Part shown: piece by piece, positions 1,833 through 21,143 of the stretch
Position numbering within the stretch: position 1 is the stretch's first letter
Layout: every line of letters starts with the position of its first letter
Assembly (NCBI GenBank): GCA_020725805.1
Contig: DYEF01000021.1
Coordinates: 1-30,382, forward strand
Source of the DNA: Bdellovibrio sp.
Lineage (GTDB): Bacteria > Myxococcota > SpSt-1050
Direction: 5' to 3'
Length of the DNA: 30,382 nt
The notes under the pieces: generated by a model
Databases searched by the model: none
Told to the model about the DNA's origin: nothing
The model's input: the letters and a program-made list of their open reading frames with translations, nothing else
Translations under genes and position numbers: made by a program

Positions 1833-2603
1833 ATGCAATATAATCGAATTATTCTGACAATAATTATATGCCTATTCATTCATTGGTTTACTTCCTGTAT
1901 AACCTTTGCCCCACCAGTCTTTGTACCCTCCAGGAGCCTTCATAAAACAGAAGGAACAAGAAACATCAATTTTTTATTAGGATATACAAATTTCATTTTA
2001 CCTGTTCCACTCCCCTGTATAGAAGTCCCTCCCTGTATAGCAGGAATAGAGATTGAAAACAAAATATCAGACAAGGCAAATATTACCTTAAATCTTTCAG
2101 GTATTATGGAATCTATCAACAGCAATCAGGATATCTCCGCATTAGGCATAGGGACCGGTCTAATTACTTTTCCTTTCAGAGAGGATAATAATAATTTTTC
2201 AATTGCTATGGAAAACCGACTTGACTTTCTATATATGTCTAACCATTCTATCTCAGCACAGCCATCTATACATTTGCACCTATCATATACAGTACCAAAA
2301 GCTGAGATTAGATTTACTCTTAGAACAGGATATAATAAAATACTGAGAAAGGGGAGTTTAATAATATATGAAGAACCTGGAAACTTCCTTTTAGGAGGTT
2401 TATCTTCAAGAGATGAAATAACTATAGAAATAAATGACAACTATTATTATGGAGGTGATTTTGGCCTCCTCTTTCATAATGATTCATATTATATAGGACC
2501 TGTATTTGGATTACTATCAATAAAAAATTCAAAAACAGAGAAGTCGAGTGGTCTTCTCTATACTATCCTGGTCATTGGAAAAAATACTGATTTAAAACAA
2601 TAA
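1833..2603 (+). CDS. Putative outer-membrane-like lipoprotein of unknown function
   Basis: A 256-residue protein with a hydrophobic N-terminal stretch (residues 6-19) ending in the lipobox-like FTSC, so it is probably lipidated at Cys22 or exported. The rest has alternating polar and hydrophobic residues with many aromatic and Gly/Ser positions (for example IYNGLL-type strand ends and SIHLHLSYTV), which suggests a small beta-barrel or beta-rich outer-membrane protein. No family was recognised. The base composition is more AT-rich than the transporter next to it. No clear Shine-Dalgarno sequence precedes the ATG, but no better start exists, because the signal peptide begins right after it. Confidence 0.65.
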   Translation: MQYNRIILTIIICLFIHWFTSCITFAPPVFVPSRSLHKTEGTRNINFLLGYTNFILPVPLPCIEVPPCIAGIEIENKISDKANITLNLSGIMESINSNQDISALGIGTGLITFPFREDNNNFSIAMENRLDFLYMSNHSISAQPSIHLHLSYTVPKAEIRFTLRTGYNKILRKGSLIIYEEPGNFLLGGLSSRDEITIEINDNYYYGGDFGLLFHNDSYYIGPVFGLLSIKNSKTEKSSGLLYTILVIGKNTDLKQ

Positions 2604-2707
2604 ACGCAATTTTAGAAACTATATCAAAATCTGTAACAATAAAAATAATCGGTATCTCTTTAGAAACATACATTTATAAAATATTACAACTGCAAAAACA
2701 GACAAGC

Positions 2708-2736
2708 TTGACACATCAGTTTATATATATTATACA
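2708..2736 (+). promoter_or_regulatory. Strong sigma-70 type promoter for the metalloprotease-like lipoprotein
   Basis: TTGACA (2708-2713), a 17-base spacer and TATACA (2731-2736) match the consensus closely. Predicted transcription starts near 2743, leaving a leader of about 28 bases before the ATG at 2771. A reading frame opening at the TTG of the -35 box therefore cannot be the true start. Confidence 0.75.
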
Positions 2737-2770
2737 AAATAAGGCAACTACATACAGGGAGAGATTAAAT

Positions 2771-4972
2771 ATGAAGAGAGAGGTTTTTATTATTGTAATC
2801 ATAGGGGCCTTTTTTTACCTGTTTGCCTGTTCAGATAATAACAATTCCAGCAATCCTTCAAACAATTTAACAGATACTTCTTTTTCCGACATCTCATCGG
2901 ATGCAGGTTATGAAAGACTGATTCTAACAACACAGATAGATGATAAGGGAAAAGTAGTTGAGGCTGAGGGACTCAAAATGAATATCCCTGAAGGGGCTAT
3001 TAATAGTTCTACAACGATTGAGATAAGCGAGATAAAGACCGATACTCCATATTCAGGGAATCTCGCCGGAAAGATATACAAGATAACCAATCTCCCCATA
3101 GAGATATACAAACCAATTGAAATAAGTCTTAAGATGGATATCACAGATAAGAATTCTTCATTTATTATGCTTGGTGAGACAAATTTTATACAATCACTCA
3201 ATACAAATACACAGACATTTACCCTTCTGGACGGCCAGATAATCAATAAGGAAGTAAAAGGGATTCTGCCATATATTGAGAGTACAAATCTCAAATTTCT
3301 GAAAAATACCATCGGTACTCTAAGTACTTCCGATAAAAATACAATACTTGTTGCACCGGTTACAAATATGATTACACACGAATTCAATCATTTCAGATTT
3401 ACCTATTCACCAGAGAAACTTGGAGACAACTTTGGAACAAAGATTGAGAAACTAAACACATTTTTTGAAGAAGCCTATTCTGTCCTTGAAAATGACCTCG
3501 GCCTTTCATTTTCAAAAAGAAAGAGCTTCCCAATTAAAATTGAGATCAAAGACTTGAAAAATATAGAAAGATGGGCACTTGCAATATCAAGCAAGGTAAG
3601 TCGCGATTATGACTGGATCGATATAAATGAGGAAAATTTTAGTTCGCCTGATTTTGATACTGAATTTAAGGTCTCTGCAGGACACGAACTCTTTCACCTA
3701 CTTCAGGACCTGTATGACCCATCCTGGTTTATAGGATTTACTGGTGGAAAAAATATATGGTTTAAGGAGGCATCCTCGGTCTGGTTCGAAAAATATTTTC
3801 TTAAAAATCCAAGATACTGTTCTAAAGTAATCAATAACCTGTCTGGTTTTTTTATCCTTAATGGTTTCCTTAATCCCGAGGATGAATCACAGCACGGGTA
3901 TGGCGCTTCACTATTTTTAGGATATCTATTAAAGTATTACAACGATGACCCCAGAATAGTAGGAAAAATCTGGGAAAATATATCTAATAAACAGACAGTG
4001 CAGGATGCAATCCAAAACGCAACAGATGATATACACTGGTACTGGAAGTGGGAATGGTTTATAAATGAATATTTTCTGGATAATGGTTATTTTACAGACA
4101 TCAAAGATTGCATAAATAAGGCAAAAGAACTTATAATCAATAGTGCTAAATACTGGTATATTGATAATCCTGAAACCAATAACAATAATGTGTTTACATC
4201 TGAGTTCAACGGCCTTTCAGCAAAACCTTTTATAATAATGCTAAGATTAAAAGATAAAGGCTTTGAACAGAATATACCTTATAAACTTACAATTTCTTCA
4301 GAAAACCTATCTGAGGAGAACAAGATACTTATTATAGATGAAAATTACAAAAGATTAATTGGTGAAGTTAATAAAAATAGTCAGGAAGTTACTATTAATA
4401 AAATTGAGACATATTCAAAGGGATTCAGATTTTTGTTGATAATAATAAATAGTGAGAAGAATAAAAAGACAATTTCAGTAAAAGCCGAGCTTAAAAAGGA
4501 TATAGGGACTAAAACATACGAATGGAGTAAACAGTATAAATTCTATTATGGGCAATTCTTCGCTACTATATACGCAAGAGTAAGTTCTACCAATTCATTT
4601 GTAGTTCAAGAAAGCACTACGGATAACGACAGTAGAACAATTACTATGATAGAACCAATAAAGAACACTGATACGACGAAATCTATCAAATTTGAAATAG
4701 ACTTGTTAAAACTTGAAAGAAATGAAGAAATTGAATGGGATCCAAGCTATGGCCAGGCCTGCCTTTTGGAATCCTGTCTTTCGACCTGGGATGAGACAAT
4801 CAAAGAATGTGGAGCAAAAATTTCTAAATTATTAAATCCACCTATAACCATAAATTCACTCTATTATAAAATTAAACCTGGTCTAACAAATAATAGCACA
4901 AATAGTTGTGATTGTGTTATAGAGGGATGTTCTGGAGAAGGAATATTTAAATTTGAAATTGTGAACCAATAA
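2771..4972 (+). CDS. Secreted lipoprotein with a gluzincin-type (HExxH) metallopeptidase domain
   Basis: A 733-residue protein from the ATG at 2771, which has a GGGAGAG ribosome-binding site. Residues 1-20 form a lipoprotein signal ending in LFAC, followed by an Asn/Ser/Asp-rich linker. Residues of about 55-130 (GLKMNIPEGAI onward) look like a ZU5-type beta-sandwich. The central domain has HELFH at residues 305-309, and further on KNIWFKEASSVWFEKYF, which mirrors the WLNEGFA.Y.E third-ligand segment of gluzincins (Glu at about 333). The zinc-binding and catalytic residues therefore appear intact, although the gap between the motifs (about 24 residues) is longer than the classical 18. The C-terminus is beta-rich and ends in a Cys-rich region (six Cys in the last 70 residues). 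The substrate is unknown; an envelope-anchored or surface protease is inferred. Confidence 0.75.
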   Translation: MKREVFIIVIIGAFFYLFACSDNNNSSNPSNNLTDTSFSDISSDAGYERLILTTQIDDKGKVVEAEGLKMNIPEGAINSSTTIEISEIKTDTPYSGNLAGKIYKITNLPIEIYKPIEISLKMDITDKNSSFIMLGETNFIQSLNTNTQTFTLLDGQIINKEVKGILPYIESTNLKFLKNTIGTLSTSDKNTILVAPVTNMITHEFNHFRFTYSPEKLGDNFGTKIEKLNTFFEEAYSVLENDLGLSFSKRKSFPIKIEIKDLKNIERWALAISSKVSRDYDWIDINEENFSSPDFDTEFKVSAGHELFHLLQDLYDPSWFIGFTGGKNIWFKEASSVWFEKYFLKNPRYCSKVINNLSGFFILNGFLNPEDESQHGYGASLFLGYLLKYYNDDPRIVGKIWENISNKQTVQDAIQNATDDIHWYWKWEWFINEYFLDNGYFTDIKDCINKAKELIINSAKYWYIDNPETNNNNVFTSEFNGLSAKPFIIMLRLKDKGFEQNIPYKLTISSENLSEENKILIIDENYKRLIGEVNKNSQEVTINKIETYSKGFRFLLIIINSEKNKKTISVKAELKKDIGTKTYEWSKQYKFYYGQFFATIYARVSSTNSFVVQESTTDNDSRTITMIEPIKNTDTTKSIKFEIDLLKLERNEEIEWDPSYGQACLLESCLSTWDETIKECGAKISKLLNPPITINSLYYKIKPGLTNNSTNSCDCVIEGCSGEGIFKFEIVNQ

Positions 4973-16460: not shown

Positions 16461-16501
16461 AAAATTCCAATACCTCTTAACAAAAAAATTCCCCGACCAG
16501 A

Positions 16502-16530
16502 TATCTATCGCTTATTCAGGACCGTTGCAA
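16502..16530 (-). promoter_or_regulatory. Weak promoter candidate for murA-alr-atoE
   Basis: On the minus strand TTGCAA (16530-16525), 17 bases, then TAGATA (16507-16502). Both boxes are imperfect. No terminator is visible between the upstream radical SAM gene (ending at 16575) and murA, so read-through from the AT-rich island is possible. Confidence 0.35.
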
Positions 16531-16574: not shown

Positions 16575-17837
16575 TCATTGTTCGCTATAATTTTTTCGGT
16601 TAATTTTAAGAGCGACATTTTCCATTATATGATATTCTTCCTCAGAAAAAGAGTAAGTTGAAACTACTATATTTAATTTTTTCTTGTCAATTTTTATTTT
16701 ATATTCTTCCATTTTTTTCTCTAGTCCAGTTCCAGGAAAAATCGACAATGGAAATGCTCTTATTTTTTTTACATTGTTTTTCTTTAGGAAATCTATTGTT
16801 TTTGAAAATGAATTGTAAGTCTGCCCTGGTAATCCATACAAAATACTAACCTCATAATCTATACACCTTTTATTTAATTCATATATTGCCTTTTCAAATT
16901 TGACTAAATCATTTTTTCTATTAATTATATTACTTTCCTCTTCAAAAATTGTTTGCAAACCTATTTCCAGACAAGTATTTAACCTGTTAAACAAATCAAT
17001 AAAATCATCTTTAATAAGTTCTACTCTTAAATGTAGACAAAGTTTACCTCTGTAACCTATTCTAATAAAATATTCCAATATTTCTATTGAATATTTATCA
17101 GGATAAAATACAGGATCAACCACTGATATTCTCCCAATATTTTTCAGATGGAACAAATCTATCTCACCTTTTATCCTATTAATATCGAATTTGTTATGAA
17201 TATTATTGTGTAAATTGCCATGGTATTGACAATATGCGCAATTATATGGACAGCCCCTCCTTGTTTCCCAGTTAATACTTGTATGATTCTCTTCTAAATG
17301 AATAATATCCATTAGCCATGGAGAAGCAAGTTTACAAATATCTATATTTGTCAATATTTCAAATTTACTCTTAGAGTTATTATAACTAACACCGGATATT
17401 TTTAATTTATCAGACGACATCAAAATATCATATATTACATCTTCTGCATATCCTTTGACAAAAATGTCTGCTTCTGGAAAGATTTTTTGCAATTCATGTT
17501 TATCCCTATATGTTACAGATGGTCCTCCTAGTATAATTCTTCCTTCAAAACCATTTTTTCTAATGTTTGATAATATTTCACTTACAATGCTTTCCGACCA
17601 TATATAAACCCCAATTAATAAATTTAAGTTTTTGCATGATTTATATATATAATTCAATTTTGACAATCTCGATTCGATTTCAGCTAAGTTATCGGCTTCT
17701 ATGACCTCAACATATCCAAAACTTTTACTTTTTAATGTTGCAATTAACGACGCACATCCTAGTGATAAATGCTTCCATCCCTTTTGGCTTTTAATATCAA
17801 GAAAAATCGCTATGTTATTATTCACTATTACCTCCAT
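16575..17837 (-). CDS. Radical SAM enzyme with an N-terminal B12-binding-like domain
   Basis: About 420 residues. Residues 1-140 form a Rossmann-like region with IILGGPSVT, typical of B12-binding radical SAM proteins; the DxHxxG cobalamin-ligand motif is not visible. The iron-sulfur motif is CPYNCAYC at 196-203, preceded by ETRRG as in this class. Downstream, LCLHLRVELIKDDFIDLF, a CLEIGLQTI strand and ILYGLPGQTYNSF complete the TIM-barrel. The substrate is unknown; relatives modify peptides, lipids or other metabolites. The start is ambiguous: ATG at 17837 overlaps the upstream gene, while GTG at 17825 has GGAGG five bases before it and follows the upstream stop by 2 bases. The gene is very AT-rich compared with murA next to it. 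Confidence 0.85.
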   Translation of the reverse strand: MEVIVNNNIAIFLDIKSQKGWKHLSLGCASLIATLKSKSFGYVEVIEADNLAEIESRLSKLNYIYKSCKNLNLLIGVYIWSESIVSEILSNIRKNGFEGRIILGGPSVTYRDKHELQKIFPEADIFVKGYAEDVIYDILMSSDKLKISGVSYNNSKSKFEILTNIDICKLASPWLMDIIHLEENHTSINWETRRGCPYNCAYCQYHGNLHNNIHNKFDINRIKGEIDLFHLKNIGRISVVDPVFYPDKYSIEILEYFIRIGYRGKLCLHLRVELIKDDFIDLFNRLNTCLEIGLQTIFEEESNIINRKNDLVKFEKAIYELNKRCIDYEVSILYGLPGQTYNSFSKTIDFLKKNNVKKIRAFPLSIFPGTGLEKKMEEYKIKIDKKKLNIVVSTYSFSEEEYHIMENVALKINRKNYSEQ

Positions 17838-18103
17838 CTTTTCCAGTGATTAGGAATTTTCCTGGTATGTTGCACAGTAACAATATTTTTGCCCGAAACA
17901 ATAACTGCTACACCAAGCAATTTTTCCATACATATGCACTCATGCTCCGCAATTTTAATAGAAGATTTGTCTATTAAATACGCAACACATCCATCACCTA
18001 CAAAGTAGATACTTCCATAACTTACCGCTAAATCGATGAGACTAAAAGAAATTGATCTTTGCTTTGCTCTTTTGCAAGCATGCGTGGTAAATACAAAACT
18101 CAT
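17828..18103 (-). CDS. DUF4258-like small protein
   Basis: A 91-residue protein from the ATG at 18103, which has AGGAGG upstream; 26 further codons are open but lack any site. The layout THACKRAKQRSISFSLIDLAVSYG, then a Gly-rich strand, then GVAVIVSGKNIVTVQHTRK matches the DUF4258 pattern (H..R...R.I...... and a closing I.TV). Some members are toxin-like or RelE-related, but the function here is unknown. It is translationally coupled to the radical SAM gene, so a partner role such as substrate or accessory protein is possible. It has three Cys residues in the middle (DGCVAY, HECICME), unusual for such a small protein. Confidence 0.6.
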   Translation of the reverse strand: MSFVFTTHACKRAKQRSISFSLIDLAVSYGSIYFVGDGCVAYLIDKSSIKIAEHECICMEKLLGVAVIVSGKNIVTVQHTRKIPNHWKRWR

Positions 18104-18126
18104 TACTACCTCCTTATCTATCAAAA

Positions 18127-18154
18127 ATTTTAACATTTGCCAGATATTATTCAA
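18127..18154 (-). promoter_or_regulatory. Promoter of the DUF4258 / radical SAM pair
   Basis: On the minus strand TTGAAT (18154-18149), 16 bases, then TAAAAT (18132-18127). Transcription would start near 18120, 17 bases before the ATG, supporting the short start at 18103. Confidence 0.55.
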
Positions 18155-18165
18155 GCAGTATTTTG

Positions 18166-18195
18166 TGCATGCATAATGCATGCATAATGCATGTA
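18166..18195. promoter_or_regulatory. Repeat/palindrome block between divergent promoters, probable operator
   Basis: GCATGCATAAT occurs at 18167-18177 and 18178-18188, with a third partial copy from 18189. ATGCATGCAT is self-complementary, so each unit is a palindrome, and the 11-base period puts successive copies about one helical turn apart. The block sits exactly between the -35 boxes of the leftward promoter (18149-18154) and the rightward one (18198-18203). Control by a dimeric regulator, possibly the HTH-like protein encoded at 18247, is inferred. Confidence 0.55.
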
Positions 18196-18197
18196 TA

Positions 18198-18226
18198 TTG
18201 ACAAAACATAATTTTTGTGAAATATT
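18198..18226 (+). promoter_or_regulatory. Promoter of the 885-residue protein gene
   Basis: TTGACA (18198-18203), 17 bases, then AATATT (18221-18226), or TATTAT with a 19-base spacer. A strong AGGAGG ribosome-binding site (18235-18240) follows, six bases before the ATG at 18247. Confidence 0.6.
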
Positions 18227-18246
18227 ATTGAATCAGGAGGAAGCTA

Positions 18247-20904
18247 ATGGAATCAATAAAAGAGATGATGAAAAGTAAAGGTATAAAAAGTTATGATGAG
18301 CTTGCAAAAATGATCCTTAAACCCAAATCAAAAAATAAAACATTTCGATCGCTTGGAAATCAACTAAGAAACTTAGATAAAGGGAAAACTGATTATTGGA
18401 AAGGGAAAGGCAGAGAATTTATAGAGCCTCTCGCTAGAGAATTAAAAATCGATATTTCTGAATTTAATAGATTAATATACAAAGAAGAACCATCTATCAT
18501 TCAATTTAGTAATTTTCCAGACATTCCTCAACTTGACTTGAGTAAAGAAGATTTACCTCCCGGATTACCTAAAGTATTTAATAATCCTGTATTTGGACAA
18601 CTCGACCCATACAGGTTTACTCGATGGACATATCAATCTGACCTTGAGAAGGAAATAATTATAAAATGGTTAGAAAACAGGAAATGGTTTAAGAAAGGGA
18701 ACTTAGAGGATTTAGACAAACCAACAAATAACAAAATATGGATAGAAATAGATAAAGCAGAGAAACTTAATAATATAAAAAAAAGCAAATTAGAACAATT
18801 AAGTGCATTATGTGTTATGATTAATATGCAAAATGAAAGAACATATAAAAGTCAAATTGGAGATGAAAATATTAATAAGGAACCTGTTGGTTTTAATTAT
18901 TATTTTAAAAATAAAGATGAAGACAAAGCAGATTTGTTTAATATAATATCACCTTCTGTCGATGAATATTTTGATGAGTTTGTCGAATGGTTTGGCGAAA
19001 GAGTTACAAAGGGAGGTGGTTTCTCGAAAGATGACATATTAAATAGAAAAAATGATATACTTAGACTAGTTTCAAATTTTGAGGAACTATTAGAAATATT
19101 ATACATAATTAACCAGATTGGAACAAATAATTTATCAAACAGTAAAAGATTTGTTAAGGAGTACTTTAGGTTAAAGATAGAGAATAATAACACGAATGAT
19201 AATAATAATAGAACTTCACTAATAATAAATAGAGGACATGAATTTTTATGTATAACAGAAAAAACCAGAGTCATGAATTACTGGCCTACATCTATGAACA
19301 AAGAACAGTGGATAAAAGCCGCAAAATACATAGGTCTCAAAAAGGAAGAATATGAAGAATATAAACGCATCAAAAGTGAAGATTTGCGCAAGATTATAAT
19401 ATCCTCGAAGAATATAAGCGATGACTTCATAAAATATTTAATAAAATATAAGATATTATCATCAAGAGATGGTAATCAATATGAATTGACTTCAACATGG
19501 CTTAAGAATCTTATATTTCAGGAAATTTTTATTGAAACATTTCAGTCATCCGGTATAGATTGGACATATTTTCTTTTTTACAAGGAATATTCATCCAAAA
19601 TCATCAAAAAACTGATTGAAGAATTTTCGAGTAATAATTATACAAAAATCAAAGAAGCTATAGCTCATCTCAATATTAATGAACCGAATAGTGTATTAGC
19701 CATAGATGCTATTTTCCGTGCAATTGGTATATCCATAGCAAAAGGAACAACATTTCAGGACAATAGCATAGTCGAAGAAATTTGGAAAAACGAAATGAAA
19801 ATTGTTATTGAAAGATATAACAATTTCCCTCCTGTTCCGCTAATAAATATACAAACGAAAGACTCGACCAATAATGATTTCCTTACAACACTTGGGTGTT
19901 ATTTATTCTCAGCACAAATTATCTCGGAGTATCTATATATTAACAACAAAAATGATACTCTTAAAAATAGTGATCCCTCTCTATCCCCCTGGATTCATAA
20001 AAGTCCTCCTGAAAACTTAAATAAGGTCTTAGAAATAATATCTTATGATGGGATTTATAGTAATTATGATATAATAAAGGAGTTGTATTCTTTGGGTTCT
20101 AGACTTTTTGACAAATTTGGCGTCTTAAATACAGAAAGATATCCTCTTCTTCAGGAACCTACTATTTTTGTCCATCAAGCGACCGGACAAATAAGTCCGA
20201 TTATAAGAAGTTTTTCTCTTCCATTTTCTTTTCCTGTCGATATATTAAAAGAGGAATGTAACAGAAGAAATATATCATATGATAATGTTATTGATTATTT
20301 TTGGCAAAATTATATAAGTAATATTAATAGTGGGAAAATTAACAACGACGATTATTTTGCTTATAAGAAAGACGAATTATTAGAGATCATTAAGACAGCC
20401 CCAGAAGAATTTTTCAACAATAATTTTTTCAACAATGAATACCAAATATTGCAATATATTCTTTCTAACATTGACAAACAGACATGGGAAAAAATTGGTA
20501 ATATGATAAAGCATAAAAATATTTCAAATAAAAAATATCCAGATATAATATGGGAAAAAATACCAGAAGAAAAGGCAATAGAATTAATTAAATCCACAAA
20601 AATATTTCCAATATTTTTAAGTAGAATACTAGATATTTTATGGAAACGTATGCCAAAACATTTGATTGGTTTAATAATAACCGAATATGAAAATAATAAT
20701 TTGTCTGAAAACATATCGGAAGTTATATATCACACACCGGATCAACATCAAAAGGAATTATTTACTTTGATAAAGAAGATTATCGACAATAAAAAAATGA
20801 TTGAAAAAAATATTGTTATATGGTTATATGATTTAGTAGATAAGAGAGTTCATTTTTGGAAAGATGTATATAGTTTATTGGTCAAATATTCTTTCATTGT
20901 TTGA
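18247..20904 (+). CDS. Large protein with an N-terminal HTH-like domain, unknown function (candidate defence or regulatory protein)
   Basis: 885 residues, no signal peptide and no membrane segment. Residues 1-80 (KSYDELAKMI, a RSLGNQLRNLDKGKTDYW segment, then FIEPLARELKIDISEF) read as a helix-turn-helix or related small helical domain. A linker PDIPQLDLSKEDLPPGLP at 91-108 follows. The rest is long and mostly helical with many Asn, Lys and Ile residues. I recall myxobacterial proteins of similar N-terminal design in which the region aligned to residues 125-150 carries a P-loop; here RWTYQSDLEKEIIIKWLENR has no GxxxxGK[ST], so an ATPase active site is absent or degenerate. The gene is very AT-rich (a sample row at 18781-18840 is 14/60 G+C by hand count) against about 43% in der. 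No known family was assigned. Confidence 0.65.
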   Translation: MESIKEMMKSKGIKSYDELAKMILKPKSKNKTFRSLGNQLRNLDKGKTDYWKGKGREFIEPLARELKIDISEFNRLIYKEEPSIIQFSNFPDIPQLDLSKEDLPPGLPKVFNNPVFGQLDPYRFTRWTYQSDLEKEIIIKWLENRKWFKKGNLEDLDKPTNNKIWIEIDKAEKLNNIKKSKLEQLSALCVMINMQNERTYKSQIGDENINKEPVGFNYYFKNKDEDKADLFNIISPSVDEYFDEFVEWFGERVTKGGGFSKDDILNRKNDILRLVSNFEELLEILYIINQIGTNNLSNSKRFVKEYFRLKIENNNTNDNNNRTSLIINRGHEFLCITEKTRVMNYWPTSMNKEQWIKAAKYIGLKKEEYEEYKRIKSEDLRKIIISSKNISDDFIKYLIKYKILSSRDGNQYELTSTWLKNLIFQEIFIETFQSSGIDWTYFLFYKEYSSKIIKKLIEEFSSNNYTKIKEAIAHLNINEPNSVLAIDAIFRAIGISIAKGTTFQDNSIVEEIWKNEMKIVIERYNNFPPVPLINIQTKDSTNNDFLTTLGCYLFSAQIISEYLYINNKNDTLKNSDPSLSPWIHKSPPENLNKVLEIISYDGIYSNYDIIKELYSLGSRLFDKFGVLNTERYPLLQEPTIFVHQATGQISPIIRSFSLPFSFPVDILKEECNRRNISYDNVIDYFWQNYISNINSGKINNDDYFAYKKDELLEIIKTAPEEFFNNNFFNNEYQILQYILSNIDKQTWEKIGNMIKHKNISNKKYPDIIWEKIPEEKAIELIKSTKIFPIFLSRILDILWKRMPKHLIGLIITEYENNNLSENISEVIYHTPDQHQKELFTLIKKIIDNKKMIEKNIVIWLYDLVDKRVHFWKDVYSLLVKYSFIV

Positions 20905-20929
20905 AAATTTATGTATTATACTTTATTAT
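20901..20929 (+). promoter_or_regulatory. Promoter of the 48-residue gene, overlapping the end of the large gene
   Basis: TTGAAA (20901-20906), 17 bases, then TATTAT (20924-20929). The -35 box includes the stop codon of the 885-residue gene. AAAGGAG (20937-20943) lies eight bases before the ATG at 20952. Confidence 0.55.
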
Positions 20930-20951
20930 TTAATACAAAGGAGTTGTTTTT

Positions 20952-21098
20952 ATGAGTAAAAAAATTAATCCAAAGGACAATCAATCCAATATGCAAAATC
21001 CTAACAAAGGAACAACTGGAACAAACAAACAATACGACCAGAATCAAGGTAACAGGGGAAAACAGTTGAACCCAAATCAAAAAAAGAAAGAAAAATAA
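20952..21098 (+). CDS. 48-residue Asn/Gln/Lys/Gly-rich protein, unknown
   Basis: Starts MSKKINPKDNQSNMQNPN, continues with KGTTGTNKQYDQNQGNRGKQ and ends in LNPNQKKKEK. It has no Cys, no hydrophobic core and only one Tyr, so it is likely disordered. It has its own promoter match and a very good ribosome-binding site, which argues for real expression. It resembles small Asn/Gln-rich proteins with NRGKQ.NPNQ-like endings that I vaguely recall from other bacteria, but I cannot name the family. It could be a stress-related hydrophilin; a peptide substrate for the radical SAM enzyme is less likely because of its position and composition. Confidence 0.6.
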   Translation: MSKKINPKDNQSNMQNPNKGTTGTNKQYDQNQGNRGKQLNPNQKKKEK

Positions 21099-21143
21099 TA
21101 TCTGGTTATCAAAATTTTACGTTAAGCTATAAAGGAGAAATTT

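What the first reader, a model, noticed from the sequence alone, without database searches (positions are those of the whole stretch)
16575..21098. AT-rich island with a divergently controlled radical SAM / DUF4258 arm and an HTH-like / small-protein arm
Seen: genes from 16575 to 21098 are far more AT-rich than the housekeeping genes on both sides (23% G+C in a sample row, 43% in der). The four genes form two arms around one control region, next to murA. Inferred: a transferred accessory module, perhaps defensive or producing a modified product, with the large protein as sensor or effector and the radical SAM pair as enzyme arm.
Basis: partly seen in the sequence, partly recalled or inferred. 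Interest (0 to 1): 0.72.

Follow-up and report, generated by a model that had tools for sequence, protein, structure and literature searches.

The report
Radical SAM plus RNase-toxin-fold defence candidate
An AT-rich foreign gene island next to a cell-wall gene carries a vitamin-B12-type radical enzyme, a small protein with the fold of RNA-cutting toxins and a large control protein facing a shared DNA switch; the set looks like an anti-virus module related in layout, but not in enzyme, to bacterial viperins, and it has not been tested in the laboratory.

Summary
Genes 16575-21098 have 28-36% G+C against 38-48% in the housekeeping genes, and a sister species keeps murA (87% identical) but lacks the island's genes.

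The radical SAM protein is a strong PADLOC PDC-M51A (candidate phage defence) member, and its model matches cobalamin-type radical SAM enzymes. Its 91-residue operon partner is DUF4258-like and models as a BECR (RelE/BrnT/colicin E5) RNase-toxin fold. The divergent 885-residue protein belongs to a family absent from Pfam, with an HTH-like N-terminus and a P-loop that has decayed here. A distant Myxococcales contig has the same three genes in the same layout.

Across 15 members of the large family, a tandem repeat with an 11-bp period (10 in two members) lies upstream of the start, in the window at 18167-18193. This points to autoregulation.

PDC-M51A homologues in many phyla sit beside BECR, HicA-like or zinc-ribbon small proteins and a thymidylate-kinase-like gene. 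HicA and RelE genes also accompany bacterial viperins. Most likely this is a transferred, viperin-like defence module with a different enzyme. Defence, substrate and RNase activity are inferred, not shown. The window lacks the kinase, so it is not a complete PDC-M51 system.

The parts
16476..16504 (.). Left arm of a 29-nt imperfect inverted repeat (21/29) that brackets the island
   Evidence: 4 of 400 shuffles as good; the pair occurs nowhere else in the 3.29-Mb genome
16575..17825 (-). Cobalamin-fold radical SAM enzyme, PADLOC PDC-M51A family (ORF can be read from 17837; GTG 17825 with GGAGGT upstream is the likelier start)
   Evidence: AlphaFold model pLDDT 78.5; Foldseek/VIA matches CysS, AprD4, MgmA, TsrM, OxsB, TokK
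17828..18103 (-). 91-aa DUF4258-like protein with BECR RNase-toxin fold; ends 2 nt before the radical SAM start
   Evidence: left-out profile E 4e-9; pLDDT 87
18104..18246 (.). Divergent control region
   Evidence: sequence
18167..18193 (.). Operator-like tandem repeat GCATGCATAAT x 2.5 (11-bp period, palindromic ATGCAT cores)
18198..18226 (+). Promoter-like site TTGACA-17-AATATT (TG before -10) for the large gene
   Evidence: consensus match only
18127..18154 (-). Promoter-like site TTGAAT-16-TAAAAT (TG before -10) for the small gene/radical SAM operon
   Evidence: consensus match only
18247..20904 (+). 885-aa large protein of an uncurated family: HTH-like N-terminus, degenerate P-loop region, long remainder without a known domain
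18613..18675 (+). Position of the family's P-loop motif (WxAPxGSGRTLVGxWLE); here RFTRWTYQSDLEKEIIIKWLE, no Walker A
   Evidence: weak profile match to AAA ATPase P-loops E 0.26
20952..21098 (+). 48-aa basic Asn/Gly-rich protein of a mobile small-protein family (NxNxGTxGxN...GNRGxQxNP)
21098..21126 (.). Right arm of the bracketing inverted repeat

Best explanation
The island is a horizontally acquired, self-regulated candidate anti-phage module built on a PDC-M51A-type (cobalamin-fold) radical SAM enzyme. The large protein sits on the 11-bp tandem operator between the arms through its HTH-like N-terminus and keeps both arms low, acting as sensor and switch. When it senses infection or its consequences, the operon for the RNase-fold protein and the radical SAM enzyme is released. 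The radical SAM enzyme chemically modifies a small molecule, most likely a nucleotide by analogy with viperin-type systems. The RelE/BrnT-like protein stops translation by cutting RNA, so phage and possibly host shut down together. The 48-aa protein is a mobile companion gene of unknown role. Shown: gene content, families, folds of the two small-arm proteins as models, conserved divergent layout, conserved operator-like repeat, partner types of the enzyme family. Inferred: transfer, DNA binding, sensing, substrate, RNase activity, defence.
For: Radical SAM = PDC-M51A, E 2.7e-116. Model matches cobalamin-type radical SAM enzymes over full length (CysS Z 29.7, AprD4 25.4, TsrM 22.8, OxsB 21; Foldseek E down to 4e-18). 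The small protein models at pLDDT 87 and its best structural matches are nearly all BECR toxins (colicin E5, BrnT, YoeB, RelE, ParE; Z 5-7). The same layout, large gene divergent from small gene + radical SAM, occurs in L027/L093 with homologues only 11-28% identical; homology is confirmed with profiles built without them. BECR-type genes adjoin the enzyme at five further loci, one of them downstream, and starred branches of the enzyme tree force at least three changes of this label. PADLOC PDC-M51B is a thymidylate-kinase-like family that also hits VakA; it lies next to the enzyme at 15 of 80 loci. HicA-like genes adjoin it in Pseudomonas, Oceanobacter and Massilia. HicA and RelE genes likewise adjoin viperin genes (PMC10865869). 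Operator repeat in the family: combined shuffle p 4e-15, and scores 7-10 against 5-8 at 44 control genes, p 1e-7. Eight of 13 myxobacterial large-protein genes have a divergent DUF4145-type partner. Absent from the same-genus genome.
Against: No kinase in the window. Neighbouring genes are housekeeping, not a defence island. The sequence match of the small protein to DUF4258 is below the Pfam cut-off (18.9 of 25 bits), and Z 5-7 is modest for a small fold. Only two loci carry all three core genes, and in Myxococcaceae the enzyme and the large protein are not adjacent. No experiment that I found supports PDC-M51 as a defence system; PADLOC lists it as a candidate. The HTH-like reading of the large protein rests on the operator pattern and weak matches in single members.
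Confidence: 0.5

Rival explanations
1. Toxin with an enzymatic antitoxin: the RNase-fold protein is a toxin without a protein antitoxin, and the radical SAM enzyme continually methylates or otherwise modifies the toxin or its RNA target to keep it harmless; loss of SAM or of the enzyme during infection frees the toxin.
For: Two unrelated RNase-toxin types (BECR and HicA-like) lie directly upstream of the same enzyme family with no classical antitoxin gene between them; the two genes are tightly coupled (2-nt gap); the enzyme fold family contains methylases of proteins and small molecules.
Against: Many enzyme homologues have no toxin-type neighbour and Myxococcaceae homologues look solitary; the kinase association is not explained; viperins, which make nucleotides, have the same toxin neighbours.
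Confidence: 0.18
2. A small-molecule or RiPP biosynthesis cassette: the enzyme makes a modified metabolite or peptide and the large protein is its pathway regulator.
For: Best structural matches are biosynthetic enzymes (CysS, TokK, AprD4, TsrM); a 48-aa peptide gene is nearby.
Against: No precursor-like ORF in the enzyme operon, no transporter or second tailoring gene; the 48-aa family recurs widely without any radical SAM enzyme, including in an antibiotic-resistance gene array; toxin-fold and kinase partners are unusual for such pathways.
Confidence: 0.15
3. Unrelated accessory genes that happen to lie together in an AT-rich, rearranged spot near murA.
For: Gene order differs on both sides of murA/alr in the sister genome; a second AT-rich stretch exists at 1833-4972.
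Against: The same divergent three-gene layout in a distant genome, the 2-nt operon spacing and the shared operator-like repeat.
Confidence: 0.1

Closest known systems
PADLOC PDC-M51 (PDC-M51A radical SAM + PDC-M51B thymidylate-kinase-like), candidate phage defence system
   Same: The enzyme is a clear PDC-M51A member (E 2.7e-116)
   Different: No PDC-M51B kinase next to it; instead a BECR-fold gene, a divergent large HTH-like protein and an operator. The candidate has no experimental support that I found
Prokaryotic viperins (pVip) with HicA, RelE or kinase neighbours
   Same: Radical SAM enzyme; same partner types in the family: RelE-type and HicA-type RNases, thymidylate-kinase-like kinase
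   Different: The enzyme is not a viperin: weak pVip score (E 0.006), an extra N-terminal Rossmann domain, and viperin structures match only residues 182-417 at Z 13 against 29.7 for CysS
Cobalamin-dependent radical SAM enzymes (CysS, TokK, TsrM, OxsB, MgmA) and the cobalamin-free relative AprD4
   Same: Two-domain fold over the full length, CxxxCxxC motif
   Different: Substrate unknown; 13-19% identity; genomic setting is toxin- and regulator-linked
BECR-fold toxins (RelE/ParE superfamily, BrnT, DUF4258, colicin E5)
   Same: Predicted fold and size; DUF4258 is listed among BECR toxin families (PMC11980606)
   Different: No antitoxin of known type next to it; partner is a radical SAM enzyme
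STAND/AAA-type sensor ATPases
   Same: Size, HTH-like N-terminal region followed by a P-loop region
   Different: Family motif is GSGRT (Arg in place of the Walker A Lys) and the window copy has lost it altogether

Membership tests
PADLOC PDC-M51 | PDC-M51A radical SAM protein | tested here: met
   E 2.7e-116, positions 15-415 of 420
PADLOC PDC-M51 | PDC-M51B kinase in the same locus | tested here: not met
   No kinase in the window; only match in the genome is on another contig at E 6.9e-11, probably housekeeping tmk
Prokaryotic viperin (pVip) | Strong match to viperin profile / single-domain radical SAM | tested here: not met
   E 0.0059, 14.1 bits; extra N-terminal domain; viperin structures align only over residues 182-417, Z about 13
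Prokaryotic viperin (pVip) | Conversion of CTP/UTP/GTP to ddh-nucleotides | not testable with these tools
   Needs enzymology
Cobalamin-dependent (class B) radical SAM enzymes | CxxxCxxC [4Fe-4S] motif | tested here: met
   C196, C200, C203 invariant in alignment A1
Cobalamin-dependent (class B) radical SAM enzymes | N-terminal Rossmann cobalamin-binding fold | tested here: met
   Model matches CysS, TsrM, TokK, OxsB over residues 5-420, Z 21-30; Pfam B12-binding weak, 16.7 of 32.1 bits
Cobalamin-dependent (class B) radical SAM enzymes | Binds and uses cobalamin | not testable with these tools
   AprD4 has the fold without cobalamin (own knowledge) and is the second-best match
DUF4258 / BECR toxins | Sequence match to PF14076 above cut-off | tested here: inconclusive
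   18.9 of 25 bits for the window; homologues next to the same enzyme in L045 and L056 pass (36.0 and 26.7); left-out profile finds the window at E 4e-9
DUF4258 / BECR toxins | BECR fold | tested here: met
   pLDDT 87 model; best-ranked solved structures are nearly all BECR proteins, Z 5-7, rmsd 2.4-3.5 over 62-76 residues
DUF4258 / BECR toxins | RNase activity or toxicity | not testable with these tools
   Needs expression assay
STAND / AAA ATPases | Walker A lysine | tested here: not met
   Family motif GSGRT; window has no P-loop motif at that place
Type II toxin-antitoxin module | Small protein antitoxin gene adjacent to the toxin | tested here: inconclusive
   None in the operon; the divergent large HTH-like protein could act as one
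Discrete mobile element | Terminal inverted repeats, target duplication, recombinase | tested here: inconclusive
   Imperfect repeat brackets the island (4 of 400 shuffles) and is unique in the genome; no target duplication seen, no recombinase gene recognised, no tRNA

The most novel reading that the evidence does not exclude
PDC-M51A enzymes are a second, viperin-independent lineage of antiviral radical SAM enzymes: a cobalamin-fold enzyme that makes a chain-terminating or otherwise toxic nucleotide, deployed with RelE- or HicA-type RNases and, in many loci, a dedicated nucleotide kinase. In this variant it is switched by a new family of HTH/degenerate-P-loop sensor proteins through an 11-bp tandem operator.
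Probability: 0.27. Interest if true: 0.87.

Novelty: new variant of a known kind. Interest (0 to 1): 0.62.

Why it matters
Viperins are the only radical SAM enzymes I know of with shown antiviral nucleotide products in bacteria. Here a radical SAM family of another subclass carries the same partner set (RelE-type and HicA-type RNases, thymidylate-kinase-like kinase), which makes a specific, testable case for convergent antiviral nucleotide chemistry and asks why RNase toxins accompany such enzymes. The large protein gives a new regulator/sensor family with a predicted operator of fixed helical spacing whose sequence changes with the protein subgroup.

Tried and rejected
Large protein: no match in Pfam, NCBIfam or PADLOC, none in plasmids or viral contigs, none in genome contigs by peptide patterns; relatives came only through the genome search. 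A single-sequence comparison of the 885-aa and 805-aa proteins finds nothing, so their homology rests on profiles; only the left-out tests are independent of circularity.

A kinship of the 674-aa gene beside L045 to the large family was rejected: it reads as a Ser/Thr protein kinase. The 724-aa gene beside L068 was also not in the family.

The idea that the TGCAT motif is a universal operator was rejected: it occurs only in the window and L093; what is conserved family-wide is the 11-bp period with another palindromic core, mostly CCAATTGG-like. In L153/L154 the period is 10, and in L148-L152 and L154 the single-locus shuffle test is not significant (p 0.065-0.35). At L146 the best-scoring repeat lies slightly upstream of the CAATTGG pair.

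An empty site was sought in the sister species, but gene order around murA/alr is broken there. The BECR label on the tree is clustered to some degree (24 of 500 shuffles as low), so its loci are not all independent gains; the window's own branch is long (2.05) and its place unsure.

Structure of the large protein was not predicted: only two of its sequences came from tools named in the rule for that job, too few for a useful model. I should have limited the alignment; the second job kept to the rule.

Literature: no paper held names PDC-M51, or links DUF4258 or cobalamin radical SAM enzymes with defence; the library holds open-licence papers only, so this is weak evidence of absence. The main viperin paper (PMC7610908) is not held.

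Full report
Observation. The island 16575-21098 is real. Its four genes have 27.7-35.9% G+C and GC3 of 21-33%, against 38-48% and 37-54% in the housekeeping genes; the 1-kb profile falls from 45% in murA to 25-31% and returns to 41-44% after 21000. Once amino-acid content is removed, relative codon usage does not stand out, so the signal is base composition. A second AT-rich stretch exists at 1833-4972. The start of the DUF4258-like gene is most likely 18103 (GGAGGT before ATG) and that of the radical SAM gene GTG 17825, two bases after the small gene's stop. No tRNA. An imperfect 29-nt inverted repeat brackets the island (16476-16504 and 21098-21126; 4 of 400 shuffles as good), and its consensus occurs nowhere else in the 3.29-Mb genome. 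This is suggestive only.

Presence and absence. The same-genus genome G001 keeps murA (87% identity) next to the alanine-racemase-type gene but has no PDC-M51A enzyme, no large protein and no 48-aa protein. Its gene order differs on both sides of that pair, so no clean empty site can be shown. The enzyme family is patchy: 13 of 195 genomes of the phylum, 2 of 395 sampled in the phylum of Raineya (Bacteroidota), and archaea, planctomycetes and proteobacteria among the 80 loci returned of 426. This fits transfer.

The enzyme. NCBIfam gives only sub-threshold matches to cobalamin radical SAM methylases. PADLOC gives PDC-M51A at E 2.7e-116. The AlphaFold model (pLDDT 78.5, pTM 0.80) matches CysS (Z 29.7), AprD4 (25.4), MgmA (24.0), TsrM (22.8), OxsB and TokK (21) over the full length, and viperins only over residues 182-417 at Z about 13 (Foldseek). 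It is therefore a two-domain cobalamin-type enzyme, not a viperin. Cobalamin use is not proven, since AprD4 shares the fold without it (own knowledge).

The small partner. The 91-aa protein is a DUF4258 relative below Pfam's cut-off (18.9 of 25 bits), but profiles of the homologous genes beside other PDC-M51A enzymes find it at E 4e-9 when it is left out. Its model (pLDDT 87) has a BECR fold: the best solved matches are nearly all RNase or gyrase toxins of that superfamily (colicin E5, BrnT, YoeB, RelE, ParE; Z 5-7). DUF4258 is listed among BECR toxin families, function unknown, in PMC11980606. RNase activity is inferred.

The large protein. The 885-aa protein matches nothing in Pfam, NCBIfam or PADLOC. 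A three-sequence profile found members in 14 of 195 genomes of the phylum, mostly in the family that holds Corallococcus, aligned. A profile built without the window and L093 finds the window protein at E 6e-57, and one from two distant members finds both the window (1e-14) and L093 (9e-13) proteins. The family has an HTH-like N-terminus and a P-loop motif GSGRT with Arg in place of the Walker A Lys; the window copy has lost it, so it is unlikely to be an ordinary ATPase.

Control region. Nearly every family member has, 35-80 bp before its start, a short tandem repeat with an 11-bp period (10 in L153 and L154) and a palindromic core: GCATGCATAAT in the window (18167-18193), TGCAT in L093, CCAATTGG-like in most myxobacteria, TTCGAA in L153/L154. 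Combined shuffle p is 4e-15, and period 11 stands out among periods 5-24 (sum 124 against 73-95). Forty-four neighbouring genes score 5-8 where the family scores 7-10 (p 1e-7). Six loci are not significant alone. One helical turn between palindromic sites points to a dimeric DNA-binding protein; autoregulation by the large protein is the simplest reading because the core changes with the protein subgroup. Eight of 13 myxobacterial members face a DUF4145-type gene across this region (Pfam), so the divergent layout is a family trait with an exchangeable partner.

The conserved unit. L027/L093 (uncultured Myxococcales, 6.1-kb contig) has the same three genes in the same orientation, although the enzymes share 26%, the small proteins 28% and the large proteins 11% identity. 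BECR-type genes also lie beside the enzyme in L045, L056, L044, L068 and L069. On the enzyme tree starred branches force at least three changes of this label.

What the family context says. PADLOC PDC-M51B is a thymidylate-kinase-like family that also matches VakA, by its name taken here as the viperin-associated kinase. It lies immediately next to the enzyme at 15 of 80 loci. Upstream small genes are HicA-like in three Pseudomonas loci and Oceanobacter kriegii, a HicA-like segment follows the enzyme in Massilia, and zinc-ribbon genes precede it in four other Oceanospirillaceae-type loci. [quoted passage not shown] A Treponema plasmid carries the 48-aa protein, a zinc-ribbon protein like that of L057, and a viperin gene within about 5 kb. 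So an enzyme of another radical SAM subclass occupies the gene neighbourhood of viperins. This is the main new point, and it is genomic association only.

The 48-aa protein. It belongs to a real family (55-73% identity) on Klebsiella, Vibrio, Treponema and Arcobacter plasmids, in the Klebsiella case inside an antibiotic-resistance gene array that looks like integron cassettes, and is fused in longer Vibrio proteins. It is rare (5 copies in 390 Bacteroidota genomes) yet lies 118 bp from the enzyme in L085 and 1.5 kb from it in L068. Elsewhere it has no such neighbour, so it is a mobile companion, not a defining part.

Verdict. A transferred, self-regulated candidate defence module of PDC-M51A type without the kinase, with a BECR-fold partner and a new family of regulator/sensor. 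Shown: composition, content, homology, model folds, layout, operator-like repeat, family partners. Inferred: transfer, DNA binding, RNase action, nucleotide substrate, defence. Rivals: enzymatic antitoxin (0.18), biosynthesis (0.15), chance assembly (0.10).

Noticed in passing
window 1833-4972: A second AT-rich stretch (33% G+C) with ORFs of 256 and 754 aa; no Pfam or PADLOC match.
   Followed up: partly
window 20952-21098; L159, L160, L162, L163, L164, L085: 48-aa protein family (GNRGKQxNPN motif) on plasmids, in a resistance-gene array and fused in longer Vibrio proteins; function unknown, PLSDB annotates hypothetical proteins.
   Followed up: partly
L164 4986-10132: Treponema plasmid: 48-aa protein, 40-aa peptide, zinc-ribbon protein, adenylyltransferase, PEP/pyruvate-binding protein, cysteine desulfurase and viperin in a row.
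   Followed up: no
L061 1630-2196: KptA/Tpt1 RNA 2'-phosphotransferase gene directly upstream of a PDC-M51A enzyme in a gammaproteobacterium (Pfam E 1e-39).
   Followed up: no
L041 191-3679; L051 312-3944: CHAT-domain plus P-loop proteins of 1162 and 1210 aa upstream of PDC-M51A enzymes in marine Euryarchaeota.
   Followed up: no
L074 4333-6528: Ankyrin-repeat 731-aa protein with an HTH-like stretch upstream of the HicA-like gene and PDC-M51A enzyme in Pseudomonas; weak PADLOC PDC-M72A match.
   Followed up: no
L144, L145, L149-L152, L155, L133: DUF4145-type gene divergent from the large-family gene in 8 of 13 myxobacterial loci: a second module built on the same regulator family.
   Followed up: partly
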